Shown here: positions 20,893-62,501 of the stretch, piece after piece
Position numbering within the stretch: position 1 is the first letter of the stretch
Layout: each line of letters starts with the position of its first letter
Assembly (NCBI RefSeq): GCF_010093535.1
Contig: NW_022985228.1
Location: 62,001-126,000 of the forward strand
Source of the DNA: Lindgomyces ingoldianus
Taxonomy: Eukaryota > Ascomycota > Dothideomycetes > Pleosporales > Lindgomycetaceae
DNA length: 64,000 nt
Reading direction: 5' to 3'
Position numbers and translations under genes: made by a program
Notes under the pieces: model-generated
What the model was told of the DNA's origin: nothing
Seen by the model: the letters and a program-made list of their open reading frames with translations, nothing else
Database searches by the model: none

Positions 20893-21089
20893 TGTCGCGT
20901 ATACTAAGAGCCTTGGCTGGGGCTTAGAGCCTGGAACTGGGGCTCAGAGCCTGGGACGCAGCTTAGGATCTAGAGATATTATGTTCTAAAGCTTAGTGTA
21001 TATAAGAAGAGCCCTTAGCTCTCTTAGATAGCAGAGTTACTTTATCTAATCTTCTAAACAGCTACTGCTAGGCTATTTTATTCTCTATA
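20893..21089 (+). repeat. 5' LTR of copia
   Basis: Starts TGTCGCGTATACTAAGAGCC. The triple GGCTTAGAGCCTGG-type direct repeat is intact here and RIP-mutated in the 3' LTR. The inner end is CTCTATA where the other LTR has CTCTACA. A TATA-like GTATATAAG is at about 20998-21006. Confidence 0.92.
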
Positions 21090-21105
21090 GTTATAGGCCT
21101 AGCGC
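21090..21105 (+). promoter_or_regulatory. Candidate primer-binding site, half-tRNA (initiator Met) type
   Basis: GTTATAGGCCTAGCGC abuts the LTR. GTTATGRGCC is complementary to the CUCAU-containing anticodon arm of initiator tRNA-Met, the half-tRNA priming used by Drosophila copia. The third purine is A here, as RIP of TTATGGGCC would give. Shared with 22809 and, on the minus strand, with 62339. Confidence 0.6.
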
Positions 21106-21229
21106 TTTAAGAACTTAGGACAATTCTTTTTATATAACTATAGCGCTAGGAAAAGCTATTTAAAAGCTTTATTTTTTACTTTTATTAATCTTTATTACTT
21201 TTAAAGCTTAAGTTATAGCTAATTAAGAT

Positions 21230-22731
21230 GCTTCTCTTCTAACAGGAGTATACTAGCTTAAGGACTATATAAGCTAGCCTTTTTAGTTTATCTAGCTCTA
21301 GTTCTATGCTCTTAGCAAAAACCTATAGGATATAATTAATCTAGATAGACTAAACACTCTAAATCCTATAGACAGCGCTCTAGAGATGCCTACACTTAAA
21401 GTAATTACTGCTAAGAACTTTCTAAAGAAGGCTAATATATAGTACTAGACTAATATTACTAATTACTAAGCTTAATTAAGTAACTAGGCTTCCTGCGCAA
21501 CACGTTTTTAGATAATCTAGAACTAAGTTAATGCAACTATTACACTAAACCTTCTAGGACCTATAATAATATAGATTATGTTAAAGAACTAATCTACCTT
21601 ATAAGTACTTATATAAGCCTTAAAATAAAAGCTAGCACTAATAAACATAAGCATGAAAAATTTTATATAAGTAAAGTATAAAGCTTACCTTACTAAAGTA
21701 AAGTATAGCACTATAACTTTAAAAGCTTAGTACTAGTAGTAGCACTTCCTATACACTAAGGTAAGAACCTATAAAATTCTTAACATAGAAGGCTAGCTAG
21801 CTACATAAGACTTCCTAGACGCCCTAGCTCTAAAGCTTGCACTAGACTAGGCGCGCTCTATGCACTAGAGGGTTATAGAGGCTAGCGCACTTAGTAAAGA
21901 ACTTTTAATAATTTAAAAAATTAGTAAAATCTTTTTAATAATGCTTTAAATGCACTCTCTACGCATAAGCAACTAAGGTATATGTATATTTATAACACTT
22001 AGTAGATAATTAGATAATAATTTAGCTTAATTTATTTTAGCCTAATTAAGCCACCTGTGCTTATATAGACCTTTAGAGTAATTCTATTATTTATAAAAAG
22101 CAGTAAACTGTAGAGACTTTATATTAGTAGTTACTAGAAAGCTAAAGAAACTTAGTAAAACTGCACACTAAAAGATCTTTAAAAGGCTTAAGTAAGTGTA
22201 GTATAAAAAAGTAAAGGCTATACTGCTTAAAAAAGGCTATATAATTTTAGATAAAGCCTCTCTTGCTTTAAAAGCTATTAAAGAATTAGATAAGCTAGCA
22301 TTTTTAAGAAGCATTATTACTACACTTATTAACTTAGCACTTTTAGTAAAACTAAAGATGCATATAACTATAGATTTTAACACTTACCTACTTTTTATAA
22401 GCATAATTCTAGATAATAAAAGTGCTATGTACTTAGTAAATAGTATAAAGCTAGTTATACCTAAGTTATTTAAAAAAGCTTAAAGTTTATATATAGTAAA
22501 AGCTAGCACTTAGTTGTTCTTAATTTAGAAAATAGAAACTAGAAAGCTTAAAAAAGTATTAAATAAAGTATAAAAAAAGTGTATAAAAGATCTTATACTA
22601 TAAAAAGTAGTTATAGTAAAAAAATTTTATGTTAATATTATCTTAAAAGCTTGTTTAAAAGAAAAAGCACTATAGTATTTAAAACTTAACTATACACTGC
22701 GCATAGGCACACTAGAAAAGAATAAGGTACT
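21230..22731 (+). pseudogene. Copia gag and protease relic
   Basis: A gag-like segment at 21300-21900 is followed by a protease-to-integrase linker: FNTYLLFISIILDNKSAMYL, LVIPKLFKKA, EKALQYLKLNYTLRIGTLEK. Stops replace Q/W. The frame is interrupted by the TRIM at 22732. Confidence 0.6.
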
Positions 22732-23155
22732 TGTCGCGTACAGCTATCCGCCTACATATATCCTTCTGCTGTGCTAGCTAGGAGGTTGACCTTTTAGCAA
22801 ACGCAACAGTTATGAGCCTAGTTTGCGGCGTAGTGTAGATGGTTAGCGCTTAAAAAATTTGCGCACCCCTGCTCTACTAATAGGATTGCATTATCCTAGA
22901 GCACTGCTTGTTTAATTCCCACGCTTAGCAAAGAGCATTTAGGCAGTGCGCCTATTACAGAGGCTACCTTGTATTTAGATCTGTCTCTAAGTTCTGTTGC
23001 TTAGGCTAGAGGAAGGGTGTGTTAAGGTTGTTTCACTATGTTTCACCTCTCTTGTTCCACAGTTTAAGCTAGGGGGTGTGTCGCGTACAGCTATCCGTCT
23101 ACATATATCCTTCTGCTGTGCGAGCTAGGAGGTTGACCTTTTAGCAAACGCAACA
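22732..23155 (+). mobile_element. TRIM (424 bp) with 77-bp LTRs
   Basis: LTRs 22732-22808 and 23079-23155 begin TGTCGCGTACAGC and end AAACGCAACA. TSD GTACT is perfect (22727-22731 and 23156-23160). PBS GTTATGAGCCTAG follows the 5' LTR; polypurine AAGCTAGGGGGTG precedes the 3' LTR. The 270-bp interior has no protein-coding capacity but contains a tRNA-like stretch. The two LTRs differ at only two positions that I could see, so it is young and almost free of RIP. It must use another element's enzymes, most likely copia's. Confidence 0.93.
22823..22931 (+). other. tRNA-like segment inside the TRIM
   Basis: TAGTGTAGATGG at 22831-22842 fits the pol III A-box consensus TRGYNNARNNGG, and TGTTTAATTCC at 22909-22919 matches the B-box GGTTCGANNCC with three differences, two of them RIP-type. 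TTTGC near 22823 can pair with GCAAA near 22928. An intact cloverleaf was not found, so this is a tRNA-derived relic at best and not a tRNA gene. Confidence 0.4.
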
Positions 23156-23160
23156 GTACT

Positions 23161-24700
23161 TATAACACTCTACTAAAAATATAACTTTATATTTATTAAA
23201 TATAAAGCTGTCTTTTTTTACCTACTAGTATAAAGTGTGCTTTTAAATTACTAACGCTTATAGACTATATTTTTACGCTTAGACTTAGAAGAGCTCTAGC
23301 ATACATGCGCAGGACACTTAGGCTCTAAAGCTCTACAAGCTCTAGTTAAAAGTGCAAAGAATGTATAAATAATAAGTATAAAGTAAGTATACTGTAAGCA
23401 CTGCGCAACAACACATGCTAAGCAGGTTATATTAAGAAGACTAAAAAAGCAAGCTCTCTACTTATTTTAAAGAATTACATAGAACATGTTTAATATGCTA
23501 TTAAGGCGCAGTAAAGCTTTATAGATAATAATTATTAAAAATAAATATAGTAGTAAAATCTTTTTATACTTTTTTTAAGCAAAAACACTTTTAGAAATTT
23601 AGAAAGTAATAAAAAGCTTTAAGAGCATAGTGTCTAATTAATATAAGCTCTAGATTAGTAAAATATAGTAAAATAATAACACTACTACACTTTTTTAGTA
23701 TAAAAAGTTAAGGTATAAGCATTAAGTAAAAGAATTTAGCATTAATATTAAAAGCTTTTTACTATATACTTATAAACTAAATAAAGCTGTAGAAAGAGCT
23801 AAATAAAAAATAATTATAAAGTTTATTAAAATAAAAAGCAGCGTAGCACTTCTTAAAAAGCTCTAGCTAGAAGTAGTAGACGCAGCAACATAGCTGTATA
23901 ATATAAGCCTGTTACACATATATAACCTACACTTATTAAATAAAGTCTTAGATGTGTAGTTTACTAACTACTTTAAATACTATAAGCTAAAGTAGGTAAA
24001 AAGTGCTATAGCTAATTTAAGGCCTAATTAGAGTAGAACCTACGCATATAGCTATTACGCTTACCTACTTAATAGAGAGTAAGCAGCTAGGTGTTAGAAG
24101 CAAAGCTTTAAAGTAACTTTATAAGGCTACATAAAATATTTTATAGGCTATAAAGCCTTAAATATTTATAAAATATAAGTTCTATTACTTAACTAAGTAA
24201 TTACTATAAAAAATATAGCTTTTAATAAAACACACTTTTATAAAAATAAAGTAATAAACTAATTTTTTAAAAAGAAGCTTCTAAAATTTTTAAAATTTTT
24301 AATAAATAAAGTAAGATTTATAATGTAAAAAAAGCTTTTAAGCTTTTGCCTTAAAAGTTAAATAAGTAGTAAAGTAATATACTAATTTAAAAGCTTTAAA
24401 AGTATAAGCTTAAAAGTGCAGAAACTAAAAAGCTTATTAGAACTTAAGTTAGCTAGCTAAAAAATTAGCACTTAAAAGTAGAAGTAACTATGTAAGTAAT
24501 AAGTATAGTAAGTAAGTTACTAAAGATTTATGTAGTTTTTAATAAACATATAGCACTTATTACTCTAGAGCTAACTTCTAAGCTAGAGCTTATAGATAGC
24601 TCTACAACACGCCCTATATAGAGTAGGCACAAGCATACTAGTAATCTTTAAGAAGTGCACTTAACTAGAGAAGCAGATTTACTAAGCTTATTAAGTTAAA
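23161..24700 (+). pseudogene. Copia integrase relic
   Basis: After the TRIM the frame continues with RRALAYMRRTLRL-like residues (the HxxxGH zinc-binding region), SILQALRNNTC, YIKKTKKASSLLILK and YAIKAQ, followed by the degenerate catalytic core. Stops and Y/I/K-rich translation reflect RIP. The exact catalytic residues are not legible. Confidence 0.6.
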
Positions 24701-25299
24701 TAGCTAACTTACTAGTTAAAAAATTAACTTTTACTTTTTACACTAGAACATTATTTTTTATAGCTTTAGTTAAAGTAAGTAAGGCACTTTTTAAATATAT
24801 ATATAATAAAAAAAGCTAAGGACTAGCTACACATATAAGCTAAAAAATATAAAGGTAAGATTTTAATAACCTAGGTAAGCTTAGAGGTGCAGTAAGTAAA
24901 GGTATATATATAACACTTTTAAAAAAAAAAGTAGTATACACATTACTTTAGTTAATCTAGAGCACTTTTAAATAAACTTTCATAGAGCATTTATTACTTA
25001 TAATAATAAAGCGCTTAAAACACTTTATATAGTGTTTTTTATAGCTGCCTTTTTTAGGTAGCTTTAACTAAGAGCTTATAAGCTTTTAAAAGAACTCTTA
25101 AAATAAAAAGATTTATATAAACACTTATATAAAAATCTTTTTAAGATTATAGCATAAAAAGAGATAGCTACCCTACTTAAAAAAAGCACTTAAACAAATT
25201 ATATAAACTAAAGTAATATCTAATCTGCTTTTACTAAAGTAAGTCTTTATATATAAATTTAACTAAGATAAGTATTTTACTAAATGTAAAGCTTATATA

Positions 25300-26860
25300 T
25301 ATATATATAGTAATTTCTAGAGTAGAGACTTACTTTAGTTAACTTATACTACTACTTTTATAGCTAGATTCTTCTAAATAGTAATAGTAATAGCAGCTTA
25401 ATTTAACCTAAAAATTAGGTAATATAATGTTATAAGCATGTTCTTAAACGTGCACAATAAAGGTAAGCTAGAAGTAACATGCAAGCTTCTAAAAGGCTTT
25501 ATAAAGCCTAGCATATGCATTAAGCTTCTCTAAGCTTTATATAGACTACGCAACTTACTAATCTTATAGTACTAAGAGCTTTTATAGGCTTTTTAAAAGC
25601 TTAAGCTTATTTTATTTAAAAAGAAGCTGTGCTTATTTTTTAACTATAATTACTATATTTTACTTTTTTTTATATAGATAACATACTTTATATCTATTAC
25701 TATAATAATAAGTTAGAAGCTTACTAATTAATTAATGTAATTAAAAAAATATATAAGCTAGAAAATTAAAGGCTATATAAATAGTTTTTAAAAATTAAAA
25801 TAATTAAAAATAAAAAAGCTAAGATAATCTAGCTAGTACATAACATGTCTATTAAAAAAGTAGTAAAAAAGTTTAACTTTATAGAAAGTGTGCTCTTTCT
25901 AAGAACTTCTCTACTGTTAGAAGAGCTTATAAGTAACTAGAGATTAGTAATAAAGTATAAAATTAAGGAATACTAAAAGCGTATAGAATTAACACTTTAC
26001 ACTGTAATTATAGTGCGCCTTAATATAGTGTTTGCAGCATCTTAGCTCTCTTACTACCTAATAAACCTAGAGAAGCAGCACTTCTAGGTAGTAAACTAGG
26101 CAATTATATACCTGTACTGCATAAGGTATATAGGCATACAGTATAGAGCACTAAAAGGCGCGTAACTTATTATATATAAAGACACATTTTTTACTAATTA
26201 TATAAAGACTAAATAATTATTTTATACATACATTATTTTACTTTTTAAGAAACTAATTTTATAGAAAGTAACTTTCTAGCTAATAGTAACTACATCTATA
26301 ATAAAGGCTAAGCTGCTTACTTTAGTGCACATTATAAAGAAATTACTAGCTTTAAAAGACTTTTGTAAAAAGCTTACTTTAAAGCTAGGCACACTATAGT
26401 AAATCTACTATAATAACTAGCAGATAATCTAGTTAGTAGTAGAGAAGAACGCCTAAATAACTACCTACCTGCGCTACATTAATATCTAAAACATGTAGCT
26501 GCGCTAGAAGCACAGAAAAGAATCTTTTAAAGTGCGCTATATTAAAATAAGCAACATGCTAGCAGATAGACTTATAAAGCACCTGCTAAAATAGTAATTT
26601 AAACACTTTAAGTAGCGTTTTAACTTTAAAGACATATAAATAAGCTTTTAAAAAAAGAAAGTATTAATTATTAATAGTAAAGACATTTTTACACTGCCTA
26701 AAAACAAAAGTTTTAGCTACTAGTAAAAACACTTCTTTATGCTATAAAGTTTAAGCAGGGATTTAGTACATAAGATGCGCAAAAACATAGAACGCCTAAA
26801 CTATAAGAACATTAACAAGCTTACCTAAAAGTTTCTTAGCGCGCTAGCAACACGCTAGAA
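25300..26860 (+). pseudogene. Copia reverse transcriptase and RNase H relic
   Basis: RT: KPSICIKLL-x-ALYRLR (family LKKALYGLKQ), CLFFNYNYYILLFFYIDNIL where families have YVDDIL (D>N), and KKVVKKFNF. Then EYQKRIELTLYTVIIVRLNI and YLYCIRYIGIQYRAL, the typical copia post-RT block. RNase H: SIIKAKLLTLVHIIKKLLAL (family STTEAEYLAL), YYNNQQII, LRYINI. About 26680-26860 reads LPKNKSFS and LREDNTL and ends the polyprotein. Confidence 0.85.
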
Positions 26861-26883
26861 GCTTAGAGAAGATAACACTTTAC

Positions 26884-26962
26884 TTTTTTTCTTTTTTTCT
26901 TTTTTTCTTTTTTTCTTTTTTTCTTTTTTCTTTTTTTTCTTTTTTTCTTTTTTCTCTTTTAC
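26884..26962. repeat. (CTTTTTTT)n-type microsatellite
   Basis: Pyrimidine run with C every 6 to 8 T, directly after the copia polyprotein. Lengths vary by one or two T, consistent with slippage. Confidence 0.95.
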
Positions 26963-27289
26963 TATATTTTTTTTACTTTAAGAACTAGCTAAAGCTAGGA
27001 CATAGCCTATAGCTTGTTAGTCTAATCTAAGGTATAACACACAATCTTTATAGAAAAGCTTACCTCCTTGTTCTCTGTAATAAGTAATGTAATAAAGCGC
27101 TGCGCATAAACAACAGTAATAGGGGGACTGTAAATAGGTTAAAAGCTAGATTACCCTACACACTGCTACAGGGCTTACAGGGGCAGGCAGCTGTGCCTAG
27201 AGGAATAGCGCTAGCAGTGTAAACTACTAGTGGCAGAATTATAGCACTCCCTACTAGAGCGCCCTGCAAGCGCACTCTTTATGCAGCTT

Positions 27290-27440
27290 AGACAGGACTG
27301 CGCGCGGAGCGCACTAGGGGGAGGCTGGCGGGGGGTGGTGGGCGCGGGCTTGCGGGTACGCGCAGGGCGGCGGGGGGTAGTGGGCGCGGGCTTGCGGGCA
27401 GCACGGCCCTGCAGAGCAGCAGCACGCGAGTAAGCAGCTC
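27290..27440. other. GC-rich patch with a 37-bp-spaced repeat in the copia 3' region
   Basis: GGCGGGGGGTRGTGGGCGCG followed by GGCTTGCGGG occurs twice (about 27329-27358 and 27367-27396). It is the most GC-rich short stretch in the window and contrasts sharply with the surrounding TpA-rich sequence. The minus-strand open frame here is low-complexity (A/P/R/S) and is not a gene. Confidence 0.85.
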
Positions 27441-27623
27441 TTTTAGCTTTATTAAGCTACAGATGCATGTTAGCAAAAATTATAAATAGGTTTAAAGCTA
27501 TTTTTAAAGCTTTTAAAAGCATTAACTTACACATAGTATGTTAGTTAGACTTATACTAGAGAAGCTTAAGAAGCAGTAGAATTTATTTACCTCTATTGCA
27601 GCAATTACAGCACGCACGTGACC

Positions 27624-27695
27624 TGCGCTGCCTCGGGAAACAAGCATTGCGCTGCCTAAGGAAATAAGCATTACGCTGCCTAGGGCAATAAGCAT
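27624..27695. repeat. 24-bp tandem repeat x 3
   Basis: Unit TGCGCTGCCTCGGGAAACAA plus GCAT, at 27624, 27648 and 27672. Later units differ by RIP-type or single changes. It lies in the copia interior just before the polypurine tract. Confidence 0.92.
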
Positions 27696-27783
27696 AAACA
27701 CAGGGTAAACGCGCAGCGCTGCTCTAATAAGCTAAGTTAACACTTAACGCAGGTAAGCTGCTGCGCAGCTCACCTAGAGGGTG

Positions 27784-27980
27784 TGTCGCGTATACTAAGA
27801 GCCTTGGCTAGGGCTTAGAGCCTAGGACTAGGGCTTAGAGCCTGAGACGCAGCTTAGAATCTAGAGATATTATGTTCCAAAGCTTAGTGTATATAAGGAG
27901 AGCCCTCAGCTCTCTTAGATAGCTGAGTCACTTCATCTAATCTTCTAAACAGCTACTGCTAGGCTATTTTATCCTCTACA
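27784..27980 (+). repeat. 3' LTR of copia
   Basis: 197 bp after CTAGAGGGTG. Inner part RIP-mutated (GGCTAGGGC for GGCTGGGGC), outer part clean (GAGTCACTTC, ATCCTCTACA), the mirror of the 5' LTR. Confidence 0.92.
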
Positions 27981-27985
27981 TTAAT

Positions 27986-29288
27986 ACTATAGTGTTAGAA
28001 AAGATTAAGAAGTTTTACTACTTCTACTAATTATATAACTAGGCTTTATAAAGATTTAAGTTTATAATTAAAAATAACACTTACTTTAACTATAAAGTTA
28101 TTATTAACATTATATAAATTAATAATAAAAATGTTTTATATATTATTAATCTAAACATATTATTTTAAGCTACTACATTTCTAAAATCTATGTCTCTATA
28201 AGATACCTAGAATGCACTATGTAAATGCTAGATTAACACTTATTAAGAACTCCTAGACTACATTATAGATAACCTTAGTATAAACTTTACCTTAAAAGAT
28301 TTTTAAGCTTATGTAAGAACAGAGCTCTGTACCACTACGCTAATACAACTAAAAAGGTGCAAATAATCAACCAACAGTTGATTATTGCGTACAGAATAGT
28401 ATATATACCCGTTGTACGTAAGCACCATCTCGGCCTTACAGCTTTTGTAAAGACTATAAGAGCTATATATAAGCAGATGCCTATAAAAGCATATTAAGTA
28501 GTTAGAAAAGTTAAGCGCATGTATGCACTTTTTAGATAAGTGTTTAACATTCTAAAGACTAAGCTAAGTAACTGTATAGATAATAAGGCTATTCTATAGA
28601 TAGCAGTTAAGGCTATAAACAACACAGCTAGCCTACATAGTCTAGTACCTACACTGCTAGTCTTTAGAGCATACTTAAAAATTAACCTAGACTTTTTACT
28701 ATTACTAGACATTATTACATAAGAAAGTGCTATGTAGAAGGTAATAAAGATGCTTTAAAAAGACTATATAAAAGTTAATATTAATTATATAATAAACGCC
28801 TGTAATAGCCTTATAATATATAAAGTTGTTAATTTTTTTTTTGCTTAGAAATTATGGCATAACAAGAGAAAAAAGCCTAAACTAGCCTATATAAGATTAA
28901 AAGCATAAAAGAAAAGACATTATTATTAAGATAAAACAACAGTCTACTAAAGCTCTAATATACATAGGTTAAACTATACTATAAAAAAAAGAAAAAAAAT
29001 AACTTTCTTATAATAAATAACTTAGATAAACTAATTATTATATAAAGAAATTCTATAAGGAAAAAGAAAAGAGAACAGCTTTATAAAAATGTTATAAAGG
29101 CAGAACTAAAGCCTACTATAGACTAAGCCTCTTAGAATAGTAATGCTACACTAGTGTAAAAAGAAGATATAAATACTAGAAGAAGTAGAAGGTAAAGAAA
29201 ACCTACATAAAGTCTAGACTAAGTATTTCTAACTAAGAAAATAAAATAATTAGGCCTTATCTATTAAGCTTTATATAAATAGTGTAAT
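27986..29288 (+). pseudogene. Copia H integrase catalytic core and C-terminus relic
   Basis: In frame across the TTAAT TSD: FKFIIKNNTYFNYKVIINII (family FKF-x-IKDD-x-x-FNY-x-I-x-DIM), NNKNVLYIINLNILF, FLKSMSLQDTQNALCKC, YQELLDYIIDNLSINF, and after the solo LTR at 28312-28440: VFNILKTKLSNCIDNKAILQ, IAVKAINNTASLHSLVPTLL, VFRAYLKI. These are hallmarks of fungal copia integrases (AINDSAGP...LVPTLLVFGAYPR). D>N, G>S/R and Q>stop changes fit RIP. The C-terminal part runs to the Fot1 insertion at 29289. Confidence 0.82.
28312..28440 (-). repeat. Solo LTR (129 bp) of the TRIM2 family
   Basis: The reverse complement begins TGTAAGGCCGAGATGGTGCT, as at 48534, and ends TTCTTACA. Flanks GCTTA and GCTTT give an imperfect 5-bp TSD (4 of 5). 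It interrupts the copia H integrase. Confidence 0.85.
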
Positions 29289-30074
29289 TAACGTACTTCA
29301 TGGGCGAGTCGCTCACACACCTGAGTCGCTCACTTTTACTAAGACCCCACCCTAACAAACTCTATTATAGCCCATAACAACCCGCTCTAGCACTATATAG
29401 TACAGTACAGCCTAGAATATTATTTAGATACTACTTCTACTTCTTGCTTACATGTTTGCGCGTTATGCCTAGTCTAATTGCACTGTCTGCAGCGCCTTTA
29501 GGATAGCTTACCTACTTTAGCTTGCACCTGCTTTTTTGCCTTCTTCCTGTTACTGCGCGCCCTAAACTTCTTTAAAGCTGTTAAGTGTAAGCTTTTCTAA
29601 ATTATTAAGGTCTCTTCTGCCTTAATCTACTTTCTTTTATGTAATTTATGTTATGTAGTAGCTTTATTAGCTGCTTAAAGCTTAGTAATTTTCTATTACA
29701 CTAACACTAGCTTATGCGTAATTATTACTGCCCTCTTTAAGACCTTTTTAAACGCCTTAACTATAAAAGTTAGTAAACTATTTATATGCTTCTAAATCCT
29801 TATTTTTATAAGCATTAATTATAACCTAAGTTCTAAAGTATTACTTAGGGTTTACAACTACTAGGGCTTATTATATATAGGTAGTAGTAGTAATAGAGTG
29901 CACAACTTTACATTAAGGCCTATTATAACTTGTTATAGGTTAAAAGGAACTAATCTAGCGCCTTAGAACCCTTCTTAGATATTACTAGAAGTAATTATAG
30001 TATTATAAGCTACTTTAAAGCATAGCAGGAACTTTATTTTTATAATATAAGTAATCTAGTTGCGCATAAGGTTT

Positions 30075-30392
30075 TGTCACGGTATCCTCCCCGGATCCCA
30101 GACATAACTGTATCAGACGCGTACTAGAGTAGTATTAGTGCACGTCTAACACAAACACAACACAACATAGACATAAACTTAAGCATAAACTGCCTTAACA
30201 CTAACTAAACTTAGAATAGGCTTAATTTATACTTAAAGCGCTTAGACTTTTAAGCTAAGTATTTAATTACTAATTTTTTTTTAAACTTTTCTATTTCTTA
30301 CATAATGTCTTGTACCTACTATAATACCTTATATAGTAATTAAACTAGACTTCTGTAAAGCTCTATAACCTTACTTATGCATAATTATAACA
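30075..30392 (+). repeat. 5' LTR of the 30075 gypsy
   Basis: Starts TGTCACGGTATCCTCCCCGG and ends ATAATTATAACA. Clean at the outer edge, heavily mutated in the inner 150 bp. Confidence 0.93.
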
Positions 30393-30899
30393 TTATGTTG
30401 TGTTAAAACCTTAGCTAAAAATAGCCTTTAAATCTAATTTAATAAGCTTAGTACTTACATAACTCTAAGCTATTAAAGTAAGCTAAAAAGCCTTTTAAAA
30501 AGCGCTTACTTTATAAAAAAGCTGCTATATTATAAGCTTTAAAGCTTTTTAAAAGGACTTTAAAGAACAGCTTTATGTTATTAAGCAGTCTATTTCTGCC
30601 TTAACTTCTATTATAGTAGTAGGAACTAAGAACTTACTAGCCTTAAAGCTTACTTAGAAGTTTAGAGATAGCTTAACTCTTTTTTACTTAACACTGCCTA
30701 TAACTTATAACCTTTTTAACTTAGTAATAAAATCTAACTAACTTTCTAATCCTTTACTATTTAATAGAAAATAAAAAGACTTACTTTTCTTTTTATATAA
30801 GCTTTAATATAAACTTAAAAGAAATATAGACTAATTCCTTTTTAAACACTTTTAGTTACTATATACTTACTTTTAACTTAACTATAATATAACAGCCTT

Positions 30900-49110: not shown

Positions 49111-49125
49111 ATCTGCTTAATATAA

Positions 49126-49221
<96 letters not shown>

Positions 49222-51368: not shown

Positions 51369-51409
51369 CTTTATGCATTTCCTAATGCTGCTAGATAATC
51401 TCTTACTAA

Positions 51410-52426: not shown

Positions 52427-52641
52427 TGTGACGACAAGCACTGTCTCTACTACTGTATAGAGCTAGGGAAGCAAGGTAGAGTAGGTCGGCTCTATTTCAG
52501 CTAAACTAGGATGGGGAGTGAAGGAGGCAAAGGGTTTTTGCAAGAGAAAAGCTTGCGCAGCGCTAAGGCGCTAGCGCGCTTGCTTAACCCTTAGCAAGAT
52601 TATGTGACTAGCAGCAGGGCTTAACAAGCAGCACTGTCACA
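52427..52641 (-). repeat. 3' LTR (left) of the 52427 gypsy
   Basis: TGTGACGACAAGC to GCAGCACTGTCACA on the plus strand. More RIP changes than the right LTR (GGTTTTTGCAAGAG for GGTTTTCGCGAGAG). Confidence 0.93.
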
Positions 52642-52689
52642 TTACCCCCCTCTAAGGCGGGCTTGTCCCTGAGTCTGTAGTTACGTACA

Positions 52690-54100: not shown

Positions 54101-54149
54101 GGGAAGCCATAAAGGTGTCACTAGTGGCCACTTCCACAGCATTCGCAGC

Positions 54150-54911
54150 TAGTAGTCCTTCCGCGGATTGCTGAGCTAGGTTGTCTACCATAGCCTCAAC
54201 AGTGCTTAGGTTAATCTAGTGTGCCACAAGGAAGGCGCGCGTACAAGCTGCCTTATCTTTGTCCTTCTAGGTCTTTAGCTCTTCCTGCTTTCTTAACAAC
54301 GCGTCTGCCACCACATTTACAGTCCCTAGCTGGTAGGTAAGCTTTAGGTTGTAATTAGCTACTGTTATAGCCTAGCGCATTTGCTGTGGGGTGAGCTTGC
54401 GCTTAATTAAGAAGTACTCTAACGCTTAATAGTCTGTAAGGGCGCTAAATAGCTTAGTTGTTTGTAGGCCTATAAGCTAAGCTTACTACTTGTGCAGGCC
54501 TTGTATTACAGCGAGCATCTCTTTGTTATAGATGTTGTAGTTTATCTAGGGCGCGCTTATAGTCTTTAGATAAAAGGCCACTGGTCGCCAGAGTCTGTCG
54601 TCCTGCAGCTGGGAAAGCACACCTGCTACGACTCCGTCGCTGGCGTCTGTCTCCATGCGTGTTTGGCGGTGGGACGAGTAGTGCGCGAGGACAGCGTCTG
54701 ATAGCATTAGGTCCTTAGCTTGATTGAAAGCTGCCAGCTCGCGTTCTCCAAAGTGGTGCCAGGCACCGCGCTTGAGCAGCTTTGTGAGCAGTCGTACAAT
54801 ACGTCCGTAGTCCTTCAGGAATGCTCGGTAGAAGTTGCAGAACCCTAGGAAGGATTGAAGGCTCTTGATTGATGTCGGTACAGCTGCTACCTTCTCTGGG
54901 TCCTTGCGCAT
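54150..54911 (-). pseudogene. RNase H domain, 52427 gypsy
   Basis: RKDPEKVAAVPTSIKSLQSF, LGFCNFYRAFLKDYG, then METDASDGVVAGVLSQLQDD, the first RNase H catalytic block (TDASDxAxGxVLSQ). The frame from 54911 to 54546 is open; stops appear below 54546. Confidence 0.88.
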
Positions 54912-55640
54912 GCCGTTGGTGCTGATGATTAGACCTAGGAACTTTGTCTCTGTGACAGCAAACTCGCTCTTCTTAATGTCTACCTAGAGGCCAGCGTCTA
55001 GTAGTCGACGGAGCACCTGTGCGACATGTTCCTCATGTTGGAAAGGGTCTTCTGAGTAGATGAGGATGTCGTCGAGGTATGCTGTGCAGGTGTCGTCTAG
55101 CAGGCCGTGGAGCACCTTGTTGATGTAGCGTTAGAACGTGGCTGGTCCGTTGCATAAGCCAAACGGTAGTACGCGGTATTTGTAGTTGCCATATCGCGTT
55201 CGAAAGGTGGTAAGGTCCTCTACCTCCTTGTTTAGACGGATGCGGTAAAAGGCTTGTCGTACGTCTAGCTTGGTGAACACCCTGGCACGCGCTAGGCGGG
55301 TGAAAGTCTCCTGGATTAGGGGAATTGGGTATGCGTCCTTTTTCGTGATTGCATTGAGCTTCCGGTAGTCAACGCAGAACCGCCACCCCCCTCCTGGCTT
55401 CTTAGCAAACAGCACTGGAGACGCATAGTTGGCGCTGCTGTGTGTGATGAAACCACGTTGCAGGTGATCGTCAAGGTAGGTCTTGACTAGCTTGAGTTGC
55501 TCCAGCGACATGCTGTACAGCGGGCTGCTTGACAGTGTGTTCTCTTGCTGTAAGCTGGATGTCGTGGTCGACTCCCTCACGGTGAGGTGGGAGCTTGTCG
55601 GAGTCCTTTTTGGAGAAGTGGGCCAACGTAGCTCCTGCAT
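54912..55640 (-). pseudogene. Reverse transcriptase, 52427 gypsy
   Basis: SMSLEQLKLVKTYLDDHLQR, PVLFAKKPGGGWRFCVDYRK, LNAITKKDAYPIPLI, FTKLDVRQAFYRIRL (first catalytic D), VLPFGLCNGPATF, and YLDDILIYSED at about 55079-55047 with the catalytic DD intact (TAC CTC GAC GAC on the minus strand). Two RIP-type stops: at 55131-55133 (Q in ATFQ) and 54984-54986 (Q in LQVD). Otherwise full-length and well kept. Confidence 0.92.
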
Positions 55641-56280
55641 ACAACGGTGCCGGGAGCTTTTGTTGAATCAACTGGCGGAGCTCCTCCTCTGGGTCAAGCT
55701 GGTTTGTCTCTTCTTGACGGTCCTGGATGAGCTTGTCCACTTCGTACACGCTTATGTGACCAATGACGACTTCCTTTTGTCGAGCATGCAACATGAAGGC
55801 GGCAGGACTTATTACATTGATGTCTAGACCAGCATTGATGAGTGTATCGCGTGACATGGTTGAGTTGCGGCGATTCCTGCGATGGGGTCGTGAGCTTGGC
55901 TTTGGAGTGCTGAGCTGGTCACGCATCTTCCTGAGGTTCTCCTTGTACACAAGATGCTCAGTCGCCCTTTGTTTACCTGCTGGTTGGAGCGCGGCCACAC
56001 TCATAAGTTTGTCGCGTCTCTCAGCGTCTTCTTGGTGACTTAGGTTCATCTCTGGAGACGAGCCGCGCACAGGGATGTTGATGTCGCGTTTACAATTGAT
56101 CAGCCTGTCGTCCTCTAGCCATCTTAGTGCACGGTTCTGGCAGTTGATCCATACGCCTGCTTCCTCTAGCAGCTTGCGACCGATGATGAGGTCGTGACGA
56201 CCAGTGTTGCAGGGTATGAAGTACGATGGTATCCGGTGGGGTCTACCCGCATCTCGAGCTTTGAGAGTTTCCCCATGCTA
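55545..56280 (-). pseudogene. Protease tail and pol linker, 52427 gypsy
   Basis: RIPSYFIPCNTGRHDLIIGR and KLLEEAGVWINCQN at about 56230-56130 match the C-terminal half of a retropepsin (LIIGR, then xxWI). The linker follows (RGSSPEMNLSHQEDAERRDK to PPHREGVDHDIQL). The frame differs from that of RT; the shift falls at about 55534-55558, where one base more or less would join HDIQLTA to ENTLSSSPLYSM. The active-site D-T/S-G of protease is not in the legible part. Confidence 0.82.
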
Positions 56281-56287
56281 GTATCGG

Positions 56288-56690
56288 TTTGATGCTGCTG
56301 GCAGTGCAGCTAATTGATCGGTGATGCTGCTGGCAGTGCAGCTGACTGGTCGGTGATGCTGCTGGCGGTGCAACCGATTGATTGGTGATGCTGCTTTAGG
56401 TCCCGAGAGGGTGAAGCAGATGGGTCGGTGGTGCTGCTGGCGGTGCAGCCGTGTCGATGCTGCAGGTAGAGCAGCCTTTGTCTACTGCAGGCGGTGCAGC
56501 TATGGTCGATGCTGCTGGCGGAGCAGCCTATTGTTGATGCCACTGGCGGAGCAGCTGTTCTCTACTGCAGGCGGTGCAGCCATTGTCGATGCTGCTGGCG
56601 GGGCAGCCTATTGTTAATGCCGCTGGCGGAGCAGCTATTGTCTACTGCAGGCGGTGCAGCTATTGTCGATGCCGATGTACACCTAGCATA
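56288..56690. repeat. GC-rich minisatellite between protease and 5' LTR
   Basis: Units such as CGATGCTGCTGGCGGAGCAG and CTATTGTCTACTGCAGGCGG-TGCAGC repeat with 36-39-bp spacing. All open frames over it (both strands) are low-complexity A/S/C/R peptides. It occupies the place of gag. Confidence 0.88.
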
Positions 56691-57297
56691 CTAGCTAGAG
56701 CTCATGCAGATTGTGCCACCTGCAGGTATTCTCCCCCAGGCCAGTCTCGTCTGCCTATAGCTACCTAGAGACTGCAACCCAGCTCCTGAGTCAACGTGAC
56801 TAAGACAACTACCAGCCAAGTCCACTATATCTGCCCTTTCGCTGTCTAGATGTGTATGTATCGCTTTCGACTATTGGTGCTGCTGGCTGTGCAGCAGATG
56901 TCGGTGGGCCTGCCGTCTCTAGGCCTGTAAGGTGCCTGCTGCCTCAGGGCTTCCGATCGTGTAGCAGGGGATCGAGGGTGGTGGTGGTTTCGTACAGAGC
57001 CCGCGGCTCTCTTCGCGTCGTGCGGTGATGGTACTATAGGCCCCCCCCTACAGTCGATTCGAACTAGAGCAGCGCTCCTAGCTCAGGGCTCCTTGATGAG
57101 GTTGCTTTGGTTGCCTGGCCTGACCAGGGCTTTGAAGGCAGATGGCTATTGTCGACGAACTGAGGCTCGGCCTAGTCGTACTAGCAGATCTCCTTAATGA
57201 GGGTCGGTCGGCGAATGCAGCGCACAGGCTGATCGCTCGGTATGACCTAGATATTATGCCGCCGTCCTCCGGCCGAATGTTACAGATCCTAGTTTAA
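56691..57297 (-). other. Leader region of the 52427 gypsy, no recognisable gag
   Basis: GC-rich, little RIP, but no retrotransposon gag domain and no CCHC knuckle was seen in any minus-strand frame. A run of seven C at 57042-57048 and several stops suggest that gag was lost or replaced. Confidence 0.6.
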
Positions 57298-57512
57298 TGT
57301 GATGGCAAGCACTGTCTCTACTACCGTATGGAGCTGGGGAAGCAAGGTAGAGTAGGTCGGCTCTATTTCAGCTAAACTAGGATGGGGAGTGAAGGAGGCG
57401 AAGGGTTTTCGCGAGAGAAAAGCTTGCGCAGCGCCAAGGCGCTAGCGCGCTCGCTTAACCCTTAGCGAGATCATGTGACTAGCGGCGGAGCTTGACAAGC
57501 AGCACCGTCACA
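57298..57512 (-). repeat. 5' LTR (right) of the 52427 gypsy
   Basis: 215 bp, TGTGATGGCAAGC to GCAGCACCGTCACA on the plus strand. Outer (right) part is nearly free of RIP (GCGCTCGCTTAACC, AGCGGCGGAG). Confidence 0.93.
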
Positions 57513-57604
57513 GTAGCTACTATTTACTAGTTTTTAATAGCTATAAAAGCTATAACTTACTTTATTTTTAGTAATACTATAAAGATAATAAAATTATTAC
57601 TATT
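57513..57604 (+). mobile_element. Fot1 fragment, left piece of a split copy
   Basis: Matches 58508-58600 of the neighbouring Fot1 copy. It continues at 59475. The part of this copy upstream of 57513 is missing, replaced by the gypsy LTR. Confidence 0.88.
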
Positions 57605-59474
57605 TAACGTACTTCATAAGCGAGTTGCTTACACACCTGAGTTGCTTACTTTTGCTAAGACCCTACTACACTACTTTTCCTACACTAATGCATTCCTAAC
57701 AACACTACTTAGACGTGTTAAAAGAATATTAGATGCAGCTTACGCTTTAGGCTTTTAAATAAGACATAACACTTTTTAAGTAACATGCTGCAGCTATTTA
57801 TAGAGTCTTTTAAAAGACAATAAGTAACTAACGCGCTAAATAACTTTTCTAAGCTAATTATATAGTTAACTTATAAAAGCTAGATAATAATAAGAAGCAG
57901 GTAATTATTTAGCACATACTTAAACTAAATGTGCAAGGATTTCCCCCCTAGCTAGCAGCTGTAGCTAATATAGCTAATTCTTTACACACTAAGTGTAATA
58001 TAGGCTATATTAGCATAAACTAGCCTAATATATTTATTAAGTGTTACTTAAAGCTTAAAGTAAAGTTTAAGTATAAGTATAACTATAAAAAAGCTTTTTA
58101 TAAAAATCTTATAGTAATTTAAAGCTAGTTTAACCTTATAAAGAATATTAAAGCTAAGTATAGCATCTAGGATAATAATATGTATAACTTTAATAAAATA
58201 AGGTTTATAATAAGCTAGATATCTACTAGAGCAGTTATTATAAATTTAGAGAGACAAGGACAGCTAAAAGCAGTCTAGCTAGGTAACTAGGAGTAGACAA
58301 CAGCTATCTAGAGAATTAATGCTAAAAAGTAGGCTATTCTACTTTTTATTATTTTTTAGAGTAGTAACTACTTTTTAAACTAGTATAAGAAGAAAAATCT
58401 ACTTTAAAATTAAGTTATTATAATCTCTAAGCATAGCTAGACTACTAATTAGCTTAGTCTAGACTAGTTAAAGCACTTTATTGCGCATATAAAGAAGTGT
58501 ACTATTAGTAGCTACTATCTGCTAGTTATTAACAGCTATAAGAGCTATAACTTACTTTATTTTTAGTAATACTATAAAAATAATAAAATTATTACTATCT
58601 ATATACTTTTTTACTTATTACACTTTTTATAGCTACTTAATGTAGGTTGTTTTACTCTTTTAAAAAAAGTGTATAAGTGCTAAGCTAAAAACCTTATACA
58701 TAACTAGATTACTTATATTATAAAAATAAAGTTCTTACTATGCTTTAAAGTAGCTTATAATGCTATAATTACTTTTAGTAATATCTAAGAAGAGTTCTAA
58801 GGCGCTAAATTAGTTCCTTTTAACTTATAACAGCTTATAATAGGCCTTAATGTAAAGTTATGCACTTTATTACTACTACTACTTATATATAACAAGCTTT
58901 AGTAGTTATAAACTCTAAGTAATACCTTAAAACTTAGGTTATAATTAATAGTTATAAAGATAAAAATTTAAAAGTATATAAATAGTTTACTAACTTTTAT
59001 AGTTAAGGCGTTTAAAAAGGTCTTAAAAAGGGTAGTAATAATTACGCATAAGCTAGTATTAGCATAATAAAAAATTACTAAGCTTTAAGCAGCTAATAAA
59101 GCTGCTATGTAACATAAATTACATAAAAAAAAGTAAATTAAGGTAGAAAAGACTTTAATAATTTAATAAAGCCTATGCTTAACAGCTCTAAAAGAGTTTA
59201 AAGCGCGCAGTAATAGAAAGAAGGCAAAGAAGTAGATGTAAGCTAAAGTAGGTAAGCTATTCTAAAGACGCTGTAGACAGTGCAATTAGACTAGGTATAA
59301 CGCGCAAATGTGTAAGCAAGAAGCAGCAGTAGTATCTAAATAATATTCTAGGCTGTACTGTACTATATAGTGCTAGAGCGGGTTGTTATGGGCCATAATA
59401 GAGTTTGTTAGGGTGGGGTCTTGGCAAAAGTGAGCGACTCGGGTGTGTTAGCAACTCGCCTATAAAGTACGTTA
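57605..59474 (+). mobile_element. Fot1/pogo transposon, full length (1870 bp), inserted in another Fot1
   Basis: TA plus ACGTACTTCATAAGCGAG at the left, CTCGCCTATAAAGTACGT plus TA at the right. The interrupted copy (57513-57604 and 59475-60346) reads across the TA target. The transposase relic is as in 2386-4254; the zinc knuckle at about 59272-59316 has H>Y. Right TIR and about 70 bp next to it are clean (GGGTGGGGTCTTGGC). Confidence 0.9.
57960..59330 (+). pseudogene. Fot1/pogo transposase relic
   Basis: NYKKAFYKNLIV-like, NIKAKYSI, a degenerate YNFNKI, AINGINAK-like and C-terminal RSNRKKAKK-type basic residues before the knuckle. Stops replace Q/W throughout. Limits approximate. Confidence 0.75.
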
Positions 59475-60346
59475 TATACTTTTTTACTTATTAGACTTCT
59501 TATAGCTACTTAATATAAGTTGTTTTACTTTTTTAAAAAAGTGTATAAGTACTAAGCTAAAAAGTTTATATGTAACTAAATTACTTATATTATAAAAATA
59601 AAGTTTTTACTATGCTTTAAAGTAGCCTATAATGCTATAATTACTTTTAGTAATATTTAAAAAAAGTTCTAAAGCGCTAGGTTAGTTCCTTTTAATCTAT
59701 AATAAGTTATAATAGGCTTTAATATAAAGTTGCGCACTTTATTACTACTACTACTTCTATATAATAAGCTTTAGTAGTTGTAAACTCTTAGTAATACTTT
59801 AAAACTTAGGTTATAATTAATATTTATAAAAATAAAGATTTAAAAGTATATAAATAGTTTACTAACTTTTATTGTTAAAGTGTTTAAAAAAGTTTTAAAA
59901 AAGGCAGTAATAATTATATATAAGCTAGTGTTAGTGTAATAGAAAATTACTAAGCTTTAAGTAGCTTATAAGGCTACTATATAATATAAATTATATAAAA
60001 AAAAGTAAATTAAGGTAGAAAAAACTTTAATAATTTAAAAAAGCTTATACTTAATAGCTCTAAAGAAGTTTAGAGCACATAGTAATAGAAAAAAAGTAAA
60101 GAAGTAGGTGTACGCTAAAGTAGGTAAGCTATTCTAAAGCCGCTGCAGATAGTGCAATTAGACTAGGCATAACATATAAATGTGTAAGTAAGAAGCAGAA
60201 GTAGTATCTAAAAAAAATATAAGGCTATACTATACTATATATTACTAGAGCAGGTTGTTATAGGCTATAATAGAGTTTGTTTGGGTAGGGTCTTAGCAAA
60301 AGTAAGCAACTTAGGTGTGTGAGCATCTCGCCTGTGAAGTACATTA
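59475..60346 (+). mobile_element. Fot1, right piece of the split copy
   Basis: Continues 57604 in register (TATACTTTTTTACTTATTAG) and ends in the TIR GTGAAGTACAT plus TA. Includes the knuckle-coding region near 60140-60180. Confidence 0.88.
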
Positions 60347-61287
60347 TTATGTAAGTATATATTTAATTAATAAATAAGCTTATGTGCACGCTATACGCAA
60401 AGCTACTAAAGAAGATACGCTAGAGCTTTCTACTAAACATAATACTCTAGGTTATACAACTCTTATATAAAGCTGCTAAATTAGGACTATATTAGTTTAA
60501 AACATACTATAACTACTATAAAGAGAAGCTGTGCATGCACATCTTTTTATATTACCTTTACCTCTTAATTACTAATAAAAAAGAGCACACTTTTAGTATT
60601 ACTAGCTTATAAATAGACAACTCTTTAAGCATTATAATAAAAAATTTTGCGCAAAGAAAAAAAAAAAATTTAAAAAGAAAAGTTCTATGTAAAAAGTAAA
60701 ACTATTTTAGTAAAAAAGCAGCTTCTTAAGTTTAATAGGAAAAAGATTAAACTTACATATAATGTAGTAGTTCTTACTTAGAAAAAATAAGTAAGCTACT
60801 TTTATATAATTAACTTAAAGAAAAAGAATGCTGCATAATAATATGTTAAGTAGTGTGTAAAAAAGGTATATATTATATCTATATATTAACTAAAGGCAGC
60901 ATTTAACTTATCTATTACTCCATAAACTATAGACCTTTTATATAATAACATTTAAGCACTTAACATGTAAATCTAATAGTAGATAAATAATAGTAACTGT
61001 AGTTTTACTTTTTTACTATTATAACTCCATTATGTAAAGCTATTTATCTTTATAAATAAATTATTTGCTACTAATAAGAACCTTAGCTTATAGCTAGAAT
61101 TCTTAATTATATTAAGTAATAAAAACTATATAAAGTAAAGTAACTAGTTTAAAATACTAGGTAACATTATACACTAGAATTTTACTAAGTGTAAAAGAGT
61201 AACTAAGAGTGTTCTTACTAGCAAACTATATAAAATAGTTAAAGAGTTTAATAATATAATTACTTTTAGAATAACTTTATAGTAAAT
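60347..61287 (+). pseudogene. Copia reverse transcriptase relic
   Basis: LLYKAAKLGLY-*-FKTYYNYY (family LYGxPEAGxHWFxTYHxHH), KEKLCMHIFLYYLYLLITNK, HTFSITSL-*-IDNSLSIII (family LQTDDTL), FAQR, KRKVLC. Later LTYLLL, then FKILGNIIHQNF and VLTSKLYKIVKEFNNII lead into RNase H. D>N and Q>stop fit RIP. Cut at 61288 by TRIM3. Confidence 0.8.
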
Positions 61288-61449
61288 TGTCGCAACCGCT
61301 GATCAGGGAGCAATAAGAAGCAAGTCTATTGACTATGAGAGGCTCATAGGGAGCCTGCCTATGTAGTGGGAGCTCCGGCGCCAAGTGTCTCAGGCTGCTC
61401 GTCCGAAACACAGGTGCAACACCAGGACCATGTGCTCTCTTACGCGACA
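61288..61449 (-). repeat. Left LTR of TRIM3, clean
   Basis: TGTCGCAACCGCTGATCAGG to CTCTCTTACGCGACA. No visible RIP. An open frame across it is not a gene. Confidence 0.93.
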
Positions 61450-61511
61450 CACCCCCTAGCTCGCTAAGAGTAACAAGGGGAGCAAAAAGAGAGCAGAGCA
61501 GCACAATGGGT

Positions 61512-61626
61512 AGACAGAGCAGCTAAAAGATCTTAGACAGAGCTGCTAGAAAAGCTTAGACAGAGCAGCTAAAAGATCTTAGACAGAGCTGCTAGAAGAG
61601 CTTAGACAGAGCAGCTAGAAGAGCAA
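61512..61626. repeat. 23-bp tandem repeat x 5 in TRIM3
   Basis: AGACAGAGCAGCTAAAAGAT-CTT alternating with AGACAGAGCTGCTAGAAAAG-CTT, starting at 61512, 61535, 61558, 61581 and 61604. Confidence 0.93.
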
Positions 61627-62339
61627 AACAGAGTAATAGAGAACAGTAAAAGAACAAAAGAAAGCAGGGTAACTATTATAAAACACTTAGGGCGTAGGAA
61701 ACAGCAAGCTCTTTGCACACATAGTTAGTACATAGAAAAAAATAAGTAACGCTTTATTAAGTATGCTACTAGTCTAGCTAGACCTAATCTATAACTTAAT
61801 AAGAGTGTAAGCATGCAGCGTACAGTCTAGGCGCGCCGCGCTGTTAGGAATGCTATCTTAATCCACAACGTCCTCACTAAGCTTATGCTGTAATGTTGCT
61901 AGGGTACTAGCTTGCCCTAGTAGTAACCTTTAAGATCTATCCCTTTTTTTGCTAGAGCATAGGCGTAGGGTAACCTTCTAATAAGTCTTTTATACTTGCT
62001 TTTTTAGTTATTATTACTTAGGCAAAAATCCCTTTTAAGCTCCTGTAAGCAGATAAAAAGCTATATTTATATGCACCTAGTTCTACAGCACCTAGAGCCT
62101 TAACAAGAGCTATGTGTATATTAATGCCTTAATTTAATAAAAGTAGAGAGCTTTTAAGGTAGCTATATTTAGATTAGGGATTACAGGTGGATAGTAAGAA
62201 CATGTAGCATTAGTTGCTAGTTAATCTATAGCTTTAGTAGAGAGAGAGAGACAATAGAAGTAGATAATAAGGAGTAGAGAATAGACAAGTGCTTTAATTA
62301 ACGTAACATAGAGGAATTTATATAAACTAGGCCTATAAC

Positions 62340-62501
62340 TGTTATAACTGCTAACTAGAGAGTAATAAGAAGTAAGTCTATTAACTATAAAAGGCTTATA
62401 GAGAGCCTGCCTATGTAGTAGGAGCTCTAGCGCTAAGTGTCTTAGGCTGCTTGTCTAAAACACAGGTGCAACACTAGGACTATGTGCTCTCTTACACAAC
62501 A
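62340..62501 (-). repeat. Right LTR of TRIM3, RIP-mutated
   Basis: 162 bp, TGTTATAACTGCTAAC to CTCTCTTACACAACA; transitions relative to the left LTR along its whole length. Confidence 0.93.

What the first reader, a model, noticed from the sequence alone, without database searches (positions are those of the whole stretch)
20893..62501. One copia lineage and two TRIMs share LTR terminus, PPT and PBS: a helper and its satellites
Copia 20893, TRIM1 22732 and TRIM3 61288 (minus) all start their LTR with TGTCGCGTA, all have CTAGRGGGTG just before the 3' LTR, and all have GTTATRRGCCTAG just after the 5' LTR. The rest of their sequence is unrelated. These are the signals recognised by integrase and reverse transcription, so sharing only these fits trans-mobilisation. 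TRIM1 even sits inside its putative helper.
Basis: partly seen in the sequence, partly recalled or inferred. Interest (0 to 1): 0.75.

Follow-up and report, generated by a model that had tools for sequence, protein, structure and literature searches.

The report
Fungal mini-retrotransposons sharing a copia's ends
Two tiny fungal mobile elements without genes carry the same start, primer site and purine tract as a gene-bearing copia element whose key enzyme domain is still intact elsewhere in the genome, so they are probably copied by its proteins, an arrangement already proposed in grasses and rust fungi.

Summary
Copia-1 (20893-27980), TRIM1 (22732-23155) and TRIM3 (62501-61288, minus) are complete LTR elements with perfect 5-bp target duplications; they share the U3 tip TGTCGCGTA, a primer-binding site and a purine tract. 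In this 68-Mb RIP-mutated, probably ascomycete genome, tract plus tip occurs 137 times (reversed control 0); the 50 places tabulated all belong to these three families.

The helper-satellite reading is partly supported. The PBS is the complement of nt 26-38 of this genome's initiator tRNA-Met gene (half-tRNA priming; copia-1 and TRIM3 differ by one G-U wobble) and is shared by at least six families. The purine tract is shared with copia-2 and copia-3, whose tips differ; its TRIM version resembles theirs more. Only the 9-bp U3 tip is private to copia-1 and the TRIMs; the U5 tip is not shared. Also for copia-1: TRIM3 carries its private PBS base (6 of 6 places against 0 of 20), and among 39 RT hits only 3 are near-complete and stop-free, all copia-1.

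Best account: both TRIMs are mobilised in trans by a copia, most likely copia-1 (0.6). Close precedents exist (SMART FRetro129/FRetro64; fungal Helenus/Copia). New member of a known kind.

The parts
20888..20892 (+). TSD TTAAT left of copia-1 (right copy 27981-27985)
20893..21089 (+). copia-1 5' LTR (197 bp), tip TGTCGCGTA
21090..21105 (+). copia-1 PBS GTTATAGGCCTAGCGC (little-mutated copy L112: GTTATGGGCCCGGCGC)
21090..27783 (+). copia-1 internal region, RIP-mutated, interrupted by TRIM1; 68-71% nt identity to little-mutated copies L061-L063, 81% to L085
27774..27783 (+). copia-1 PPT CTAGAGGGTG
27784..27980 (+). copia-1 3' LTR
22727..22731 (+). TSD GTACT left of TRIM1 (right copy 23156-23160)
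22732..22808 (+). TRIM1 5' LTR (77 bp)
22809..22821 (+). TRIM1 PBS GTTATGAGCCTAG (L052: GTTATGAGCCCGG, exact complement of 13 nt of the initiator tRNA-Met anticodon arm)
23069..23078 (+). TRIM1 PPT CTAGGGGGTG
23079..23155 (+). TRIM1 3' LTR
62340..62501 (-). TRIM3 5' LTR (162 bp), tip mutated to TGTTGTGTA; TSD ATTTA at 62502-62506
62327..62339 (-). TRIM3 PBS GTTATAGGCCTAG (L055: GTTATGGGCCCGG)
61450..61459 (-). TRIM3 PPT CTAGGGGGTG
61288..61449 (-). TRIM3 3' LTR, tip TGTCGCGTA; TSD ATTTA at 61283-61287
28352..28440 (-). relict of a different mini-LTR family (famX, tip TGTAAGGCC): in-genome contrast with other ends, not part of the helper-satellite set

Best explanation
TRIM1 (about 424 bp) and TRIM3 (about 1.2 kb, with longer forms of about 1.8-1.9 kb) are gene-less LTR retrotransposons that move by using the proteins of a Ty1/copia element, most likely copia-1. 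Inferred route: the TRIM RNA is packaged by copia Gag; reverse transcription is primed by the 5' half of initiator tRNA-Met annealed to GTTATGRGCCCGG; plus strand starts at GGGGGGTG; copia-1 integrase recognises a cDNA beginning TGTCGCGTA and inserts it with a 5-bp duplication. Shown: element boundaries, TSDs, tRNA complementarity, tip/PBS/PPT sharing, copia-1 copies with a near-complete stop-free RT domain, near-identical LTR pairs in both partners. Inferred: packaging, enzyme sharing, and that the shared tip reflects recognition by one integrase.
For: Exact 9-bp U3 tip shared by copia-1, TRIM1 and TRIM3; all other pairs among the six families compared share only 3-4 bases. Of 137 PPT+tip places, the 50 tabulated are 19 copia-1, 25 TRIM1 (one, L052, with famX inserted in its 3' LTR) and 6 TRIM3; three in the window and two in L111/L113 also belong to these families. 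Perfect 5-bp TSDs: 11 of 11 TRIM1 copies in which a script found all four LTR ends (copies with an end not found were not counted), 2 of 2 TRIM3 and 3 of 3 copia-1 likewise, one of the latter a deletion derivative. PBS matches the genome's initiator tRNA-Met. TRIM3 carries copia-1's private PBS variant GTTATGGGCC: 6 of 6 such places are copia-1 (4, one assigned by distance) or TRIM3 (2); the 20 GTTATGAGCC places are other families. Near-complete RVT_2 domain (positions 8/10-235 of 244) without stops: 3 of 39 hits, all copia-1. Recent activity in both partners: copia-1 L062 LTRs 217 of 218 identical; TRIM1 pairs identical in L039 and on C89, C37, C33 (all six LTRs 100% to one query). No same-strand LTR pair at 4-9 kb spacing, which would mark an autonomous partner with TRIM LTRs, among the 40 scored TRIM1 hits (of 370 candidates) or 40 scored TRIM3 hits (of 140).
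Against: PBS and PPT are shared with other copias (copia-2: GTTATGAGCCCGG and AAGCTAGGGGGTG / CAAGCTGGGGGGGTA; copia-3 PPT CCAAGCTGAGGGGGTG). TRIM1 PBS equals copia-2's. Context before the tract: GCT in 31 of 31 TRIM loci tabulated (L052 included), CCT in 19 of 19 copia-1 loci, GCT in copia-2/3. U5 tips differ: TRIM1 CGCAACA, TRIM3 TTGCGACA, copia-1 CCTCCACA. Copia-2 is not wholly dead: three hits are stop-free over the last part of the domain (L079, L080, L088) and the C15 copy has only two stops in the rest. The L062 copia-1 copy has its frame interrupted outside the RT. No shared internal (packaging) sequence with copia-1 found beyond PBS and PPT. Loci were found by the tip itself, so tip conservation is partly ascertainment. 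Gypsy elements were not surveyed.
Confidence: 0.6

Rival explanations
1. The helper is another copia (copia-2, one of the L123/L125 families, or an unseen family); the U3 tip of copia-1 is shared for another reason such as common descent or cDNA recombination.
For: TRIM1 PBS is identical to copia-2's; TRIM PPT flank GCT matches copia-2/-3; both TRIMs end GCRACA, copia-1 TCCACA; copia-2 has partly stop-free RT stretches.
Against: No copia-2 or copia-3 hit among the 39 is near-complete and stop-free while TRIM1 has identical LTR pairs; copia-2 tip TGTTTGCAG and copia-3 tip TGTCAGATA differ; no autonomous element with TRIM-like LTRs in the hits scored.
Confidence: 0.25
2. TRIM1 and TRIM3 descend from an ancient copia-1-like element (or one from the other); the tip, PBS and PPT are what purifying selection kept and need not point to the present helper.
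For: TRIM1 and TRIM3 share the tip and a 14-nt PPT stretch; TRIM3 shares copia-1's PBS variant; an internally deleted copia-1 derivative with a TSD exists (L004).
Against: No significant LTR similarity beyond 9 bp and no internal similarity beyond PBS/PPT; the one deletion derivative found is single-copy.
Confidence: 0.1
3. Coincidence: unrelated families with generic copia signals and no functional link.
For: TGT is common to all six families compared, PBS and PPT are common to several copia families; a bare 9-bp match is not significant as a local alignment.
Against: Six further bases at the LTR start match in all three families (4^-6 per pair by chance, my arithmetic); GGGTGTGTCGCGTA 137 against 0; the PBS variant splits 6 of 6 against 0 of 20.
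Confidence: 0.05

Closest known systems
SMART FRetro129 and its candidate autonomous copia FRetro64 (grasses; PMC3281118, passages read)
   Same: Very small gene-less LTR element; LTRs not similar to the helper's except for a short motif (11 bp there, 9 bp here); shared PBS and PPT; 5-bp TSD; TGT...ACA ends; copia helper proposed.
   Different: There the internal region is 96% identical to the helper; here no internal similarity beyond PBS and PPT. Here the shared motif is the U3 tip itself and the primer is a half tRNA.
Helenus (TRIMp3) of rust and other fungi with Copia helpers (PMC10886601; abstract, section 3.6 and passages read)
   Different: Helenus has a tRNA-derived sequence in its LTRs; none detected here. 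In fungi that paper reports Helenus from Pucciniales and several Agaricomycetes; this genome looks ascomycete.
Plant TRIMs with putative autonomous partners such as OsajRetroS10/OsajLTRA10 (PMC4717578, passages read) and ant PbTRIM (PMC3532108, passages read)
   Same: Short LTRs, no coding capacity, TSDs, dependence on other elements.
   Different: The plant pairs share LTR and internal sequence with the partner; PbTRIM has 4-bp TSDs and no known partner.
Drosophila copia and yeast Ty5 half-tRNA priming (stated in PMC10886601 section 3.6; details recalled)
   Same: PBS pairs with the anticodon arm of initiator tRNA-Met rather than the 3' CCA end.
   Different: Copia-3 of this genome appears to use the same arm of tRNA-Lys(CTT).

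Membership tests
[quoted passage not shown]
   77-bp LTRs / 424 bp (TRIM1), 162-bp LTRs / 1,214 bp (TRIM3 in window); perfect 5-bp TSDs
[quoted passage not shown]
   TRIM3: longest stop-to-stop frame overlapping the L055 element is 140 aa, running over the LTR; none over 82 aa in L060; TRIM1 internal region is about 270 nt; no Pfam search of these frames was made
[quoted passage not shown]
   370 candidates, 40 scored; identical LTR pairs; 11 of 11 with TSD; 140 candidates, 40 scored
Ty1/copia superfamily (the 20893 element) | copia-type reverse transcriptase | tested here: met
   window element is 68-71% identical (nt, about 2.7-3.7 kb) to L061-L063, which hold the RVT_2 hits; the window copy itself was not among the RVT_2 hits
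Ty1/copia superfamily (the 20893 element) | gene order gag-PR-IN-RT-RH | not tested
   only an RVT_2 and an SH3-like piece were matched; the frame was not read through
Helenus / TRIMp3 | tRNA-derived sequence in the LTR | tested here: not met
   ARAGORN none on L052 and window, Rfam none at E<=1 on L052, L105, L055, L112, L111
Helenus / TRIMp3 | PBS to the anticodon arm of a tRNA and 5-bp TSD | tested here: met
helper-satellite pair with copia-1 | shared cis signals not shared with other autonomous families | tested here: inconclusive
   U3 tip: met. PBS variant: met for TRIM3, not for TRIM1. PPT: not specific. U5 tip: not shared
helper-satellite pair with copia-1 | helper proteins demonstrably act on the satellite | not testable with these tools
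   needs expression and mobilisation data

The most novel reading that the evidence does not exclude
Three LTR families of unrelated sequence have been held to one 9-bp U3 tip because a single copia integrase must accept them. With no other shared sequence than a half-tRNA site and a purine tract, the minimal cis requirement for hijacking a copia would be tip + PBS + PPT, with no dedicated packaging sequence and with a free U5 tip. TRIM3's use of the helper's own G-U wobble base in the PBS would mark it as the closer satellite.
Probability: 0.3. Interest if true: 0.55.

Novelty: new member of a known kind. Interest (0 to 1): 0.42.

Why it matters
How gene-less LTR elements choose a helper is still open; for 278 of 289 plant TRIM subfamilies no protein-encoding relative was found (PMC4717578, passage). 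Here little-mutated copies of helper and satellites coexist, several candidate copias with different tips and primer tRNAs serve as internal controls, and each signal can be scored separately. The result separates what is generic (half-tRNA PBS, PPT) from what is specific (U3 tip, one PBS base).

Tried and rejected
Rejected: PBS sharing as evidence of a specific helper (it is the complement of the host initiator tRNA and occurs in at least six families). Rejected: the nested position of TRIM1 as evidence; TRIM1 also sits in another copia-1 copy (L059), and insertion into a common repeat is expected. Rejected: L052 as a fourth tip-sharing family; it is a TRIM1 with famX inserted in its 3' LTR, TSD GCGTA. 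Rejected: L012 as LTR of an autonomous TRIM1 partner; no TSD or direct repeat seen. Rejected: the copia-1 deletion derivative L004 as an amplified satellite; its junction occurs once among the 40 hits scored of 62 candidates.

Led nowhere: tRNA patterns were mis-spaced and found nothing; worked. A pattern scan for other copia PPTs found only L079; alignment found copia-3. In one search the copia-2 LTR and tail were cut 10 nt too late; redone (in one search the copia-1 tail lacks its last base). Weak leads not pursued: tRNA-like A and B boxes inside TRIM1 (no Rfam or ARAGORN support), a G-rich tract in the middle of copia-1 coding sequence resembling the TRIM PPT.

Limits: 100 of 137 PPT+tip places were listed and 50 tabulated; 30 of 39 RVT_2 hits were fetched; LTR searches scored 40 of 370 and 40 of 140 candidates; gypsy elements were not surveyed. 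Of the 26 PBS places, 17 were read; 9 were assigned by position (eight TRIM1: four abutting a TRIM1 LTR hit, four by distance to a PPT hit; one copia-1 by distance to L061's RT). Of 55 AGCTGGGGGGTGTG places 40 could be compared with the listed part of the tip search; the 4 not in it were read and are TRIM1 with mutated tips; 15 could not be compared. Papers: only the abstract, section and passages were read; others only in listings. No claim is made that these families are unpublished.
Full report
Setting. The window is G000:C67:62001-126000 of a 68.4-Mb genome in 99 contigs. Base composition is that of a RIP-mutated fungal compartment (GC 0.31, TpA/ApT 1.86; the reading as RIP is from general knowledge). 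The RT piece of copia-1 is 67% identical to a Pyrenophora tritici-repentis protein, so the host is probably an ascomycete; it was not named.

The observation. Three complete elements are present with 5-bp target duplications: copia-1 (TTAAT), TRIM1 (GTACT) nested in it, and TRIM3 on the minus strand (ATTTA). They share TGTCGCGTA at the LTR start (mutated in TRIM3's 5' LTR), a PBS just after the 5' LTR and a purine tract just before the 3' LTR. TGTCGCGTA is 5 against 0.07 expected in the window. Genome-wide, GGGTGTGTCGCGTA occurs 137 times and its reversed control 0 times. Of these, 50 were tabulated: 19 copia-1, 25 TRIM1 (one interrupted by famX, L052) and 6 TRIM3, no other family. Of 40 AGCTGGGGGGTGTG places that can be compared with the listed part of that search, 4 are absent from it; read, they are TRIM1 copies with transition-mutated tips.

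The elements are real and were recently mobile. 11 of 11 TRIM1 copies in which a script found all four LTR ends have perfect 5-bp TSDs and LTR pairs with 0-4 mismatches, one pair being of unequal length. On C89, C37 and C33 both LTRs are 100% identical to one query. TRIM3 L055 has LTRs 155 of 162 identical, TSD ACAAG. The window copia is a mutated copy of a family whose little-mutated members L061-L063 match it at 68-71% and L085 at 81%. Three of 39 RVT_2 hits span nearly the whole domain without stops and all three are this family; three copia-2 hits (L079, L080, L088) are stop-free over its last part only. The L062 copy has LTRs 217 of 218 identical, TSD CTTTA, tip TGTCGCGTA, PBS GTTATGGGCCCGG and PPT CACCTGGGGGGTG, but its frame is interrupted outside the RT.

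The primer-binding site is a host constraint. The genome's initiator tRNA-Met gene (L114) contains CCGGGCTCATAAC (gene nt 26-38); its reverse complement GTTATGAGCCCGG is exactly the PBS of TRIM1 and copia-2, and copia-1 and TRIM3 differ by one G-U wobble. This is half-tRNA priming as stated for Drosophila copia, Ty5 and most fungal Helenus families (PMC10886601 section 3.6). All 26 exact CAGTTATGRGCCCGG places were assigned, 17 by reading and 9 by position: TRIM1 9, copia-2 8, copia-1 4, TRIM3 2, the L123/L130 family 2, the L125 family 1. The wobble form is found in copia-1 (4) and TRIM3 (2) only; the plain form in the other 20. Copia-3 instead has ATTAAGAGTCTCA (two loci), complementary to the same arm of tRNA-Lys(CTT). 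The PBS is therefore informative about primer choice but not about one helper.

The purine tract is a copia-wide signal. Copia-2 has AAGCTAGGGGGTG (L079) or CAAGCTGGGGGGGTA (L088; L066 similar), copia-3 CCAAGCTGAGGGGGTG (9 loci), both with other LTR tips (TGTTTGCAG, TGTCAGATA). The context GCT before the tract is found in 31 of 31 TRIM loci tabulated and CCT in 19 of 19 copia-1 loci, so here the TRIMs resemble copia-2/3.

The tip is the specific signal. Among six families (copia-1, -2, -3, TRIM1, TRIM3, famX) all LTRs share TGT; copia-1, TRIM1 and TRIM3 share 9 bases, no other pair more than 4. After removal of 9 bp no LTR pair exceeds shuffles. The 3' LTR ends share only ACA between TRIMs and copia-1. 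FamX, a mini-LTR element with tip TGTAAGGCC inserted in a TRIM1 LTR with TSD GCGTA, shows that not every small LTR element in this genome has these ends.

TRIM1 against TRIM3. They share the tip, the U5 form GCRACA and 14 nt at the PPT (CGAGCTGGGGGGTG). A looser resemblance further upstream is not significant once the PPT is left out (68 of 500 shuffles), so common descent of the two is possible but not shown.

Mechanism. The TRIMs have no gene, so proteins come in trans. 5-bp TSDs and an anticodon-arm PBS point to a copia. Among copias, the tip, the stop-free RT domains and (for TRIM3) the PBS base favour copia-1; the PBS of TRIM1, the PPT context and the U5 tip do not. Packaging is unexplained: no internal similarity to copia-1 beyond PBS and PPT was found.

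What is known. SMART FRetro129 and its candidate helper FRetro64 share an 11-bp LTR motif, PBS and PPT but no detectable LTR similarity otherwise (PMC3281118). Fungal Helenus TRIMs share anticodon-loop PBS with Copia; for the one pair aligned in detail there the LTRs are not similar (PMC10886601). TRIMs have been annotated in an ascomycete, Venturia (PMC4646964, passages). The present case is a new member of this known kind, with useful internal controls.

Noticed in passing
L052:1515-2087; relict in window 28352-28440 (minus): famX, a small LTR element (tip TGTAAGGCC, end CCTTACA, PPT AAGAAGGGGGATAA, TSD GCGTA) inserted in a TRIM1 3' LTR; its LTR end and leader hold short stretches that look like tRNA A and B boxes (recalled motifs; no ARAGORN or Rfam hit).
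   Followed up: partly
L046:2218, L084:3206 (+); tRNA gene L134: Copia-3, the commonest copia among RVT_2 loci fetched (17 of 30), has a PBS complementary to the anticodon arm of tRNA-Lys(CTT), so half-tRNA priming with two different tRNAs seems to coexist in one genome.
   Followed up: yes
L004:1501-2706: Copia-1 copy with most of its interior missing (about 677 nt of 5' and 100 nt of 3' interior left), TSD AGACT; its junction was found once in the genome.
   Followed up: yes
L052:1229-1505 (TRIM1 interior), window 22809-23078: Just after the PBS lies TAGTGTAGATGGTTAGCGC and further on GTGTTTGATTCCC, resembling Pol III A and B boxes (recalled motifs); Rfam and ARAGORN find nothing.
   Followed up: partly
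G000:C7:69745-71568, C25:364528-366374, C54:164716-166611: TRIM3 LTR pairs with starts 1.66-1.73 kb apart, longer than the window copy; no frame over 82 aa in L060 (the C7 copy, nearly whole).
   Followed up: partly
L111:434-460: Copia-1 has a perfect 11-bp inverted repeat (CAGGTGAGCTG...CAGCTCACCTG) directly abutting its PPT; it was not seen by eye in either TRIM.
   Followed up: no
L062:696-709, L061:702-715: A tract CGAGCTCGGGGGTG near the middle of copia-1 (3107 of 6776) resembles the TRIM PPT; possibly a central PPT, weak.
   Followed up: partly
G000:C7, C13, C24 contig ends: Little-mutated copia-1 copies (L061 on C7) or their PBS (C13, C24) lie at contig ends, as expected for near-identical young copies that break an assembly.
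   Followed up: no
window 62854-63317 and 63494-63957: 464-bp inverted-repeat arms (92%) near TRIM3, overlapping repeat families seen at several places in the window.
   Followed up: no
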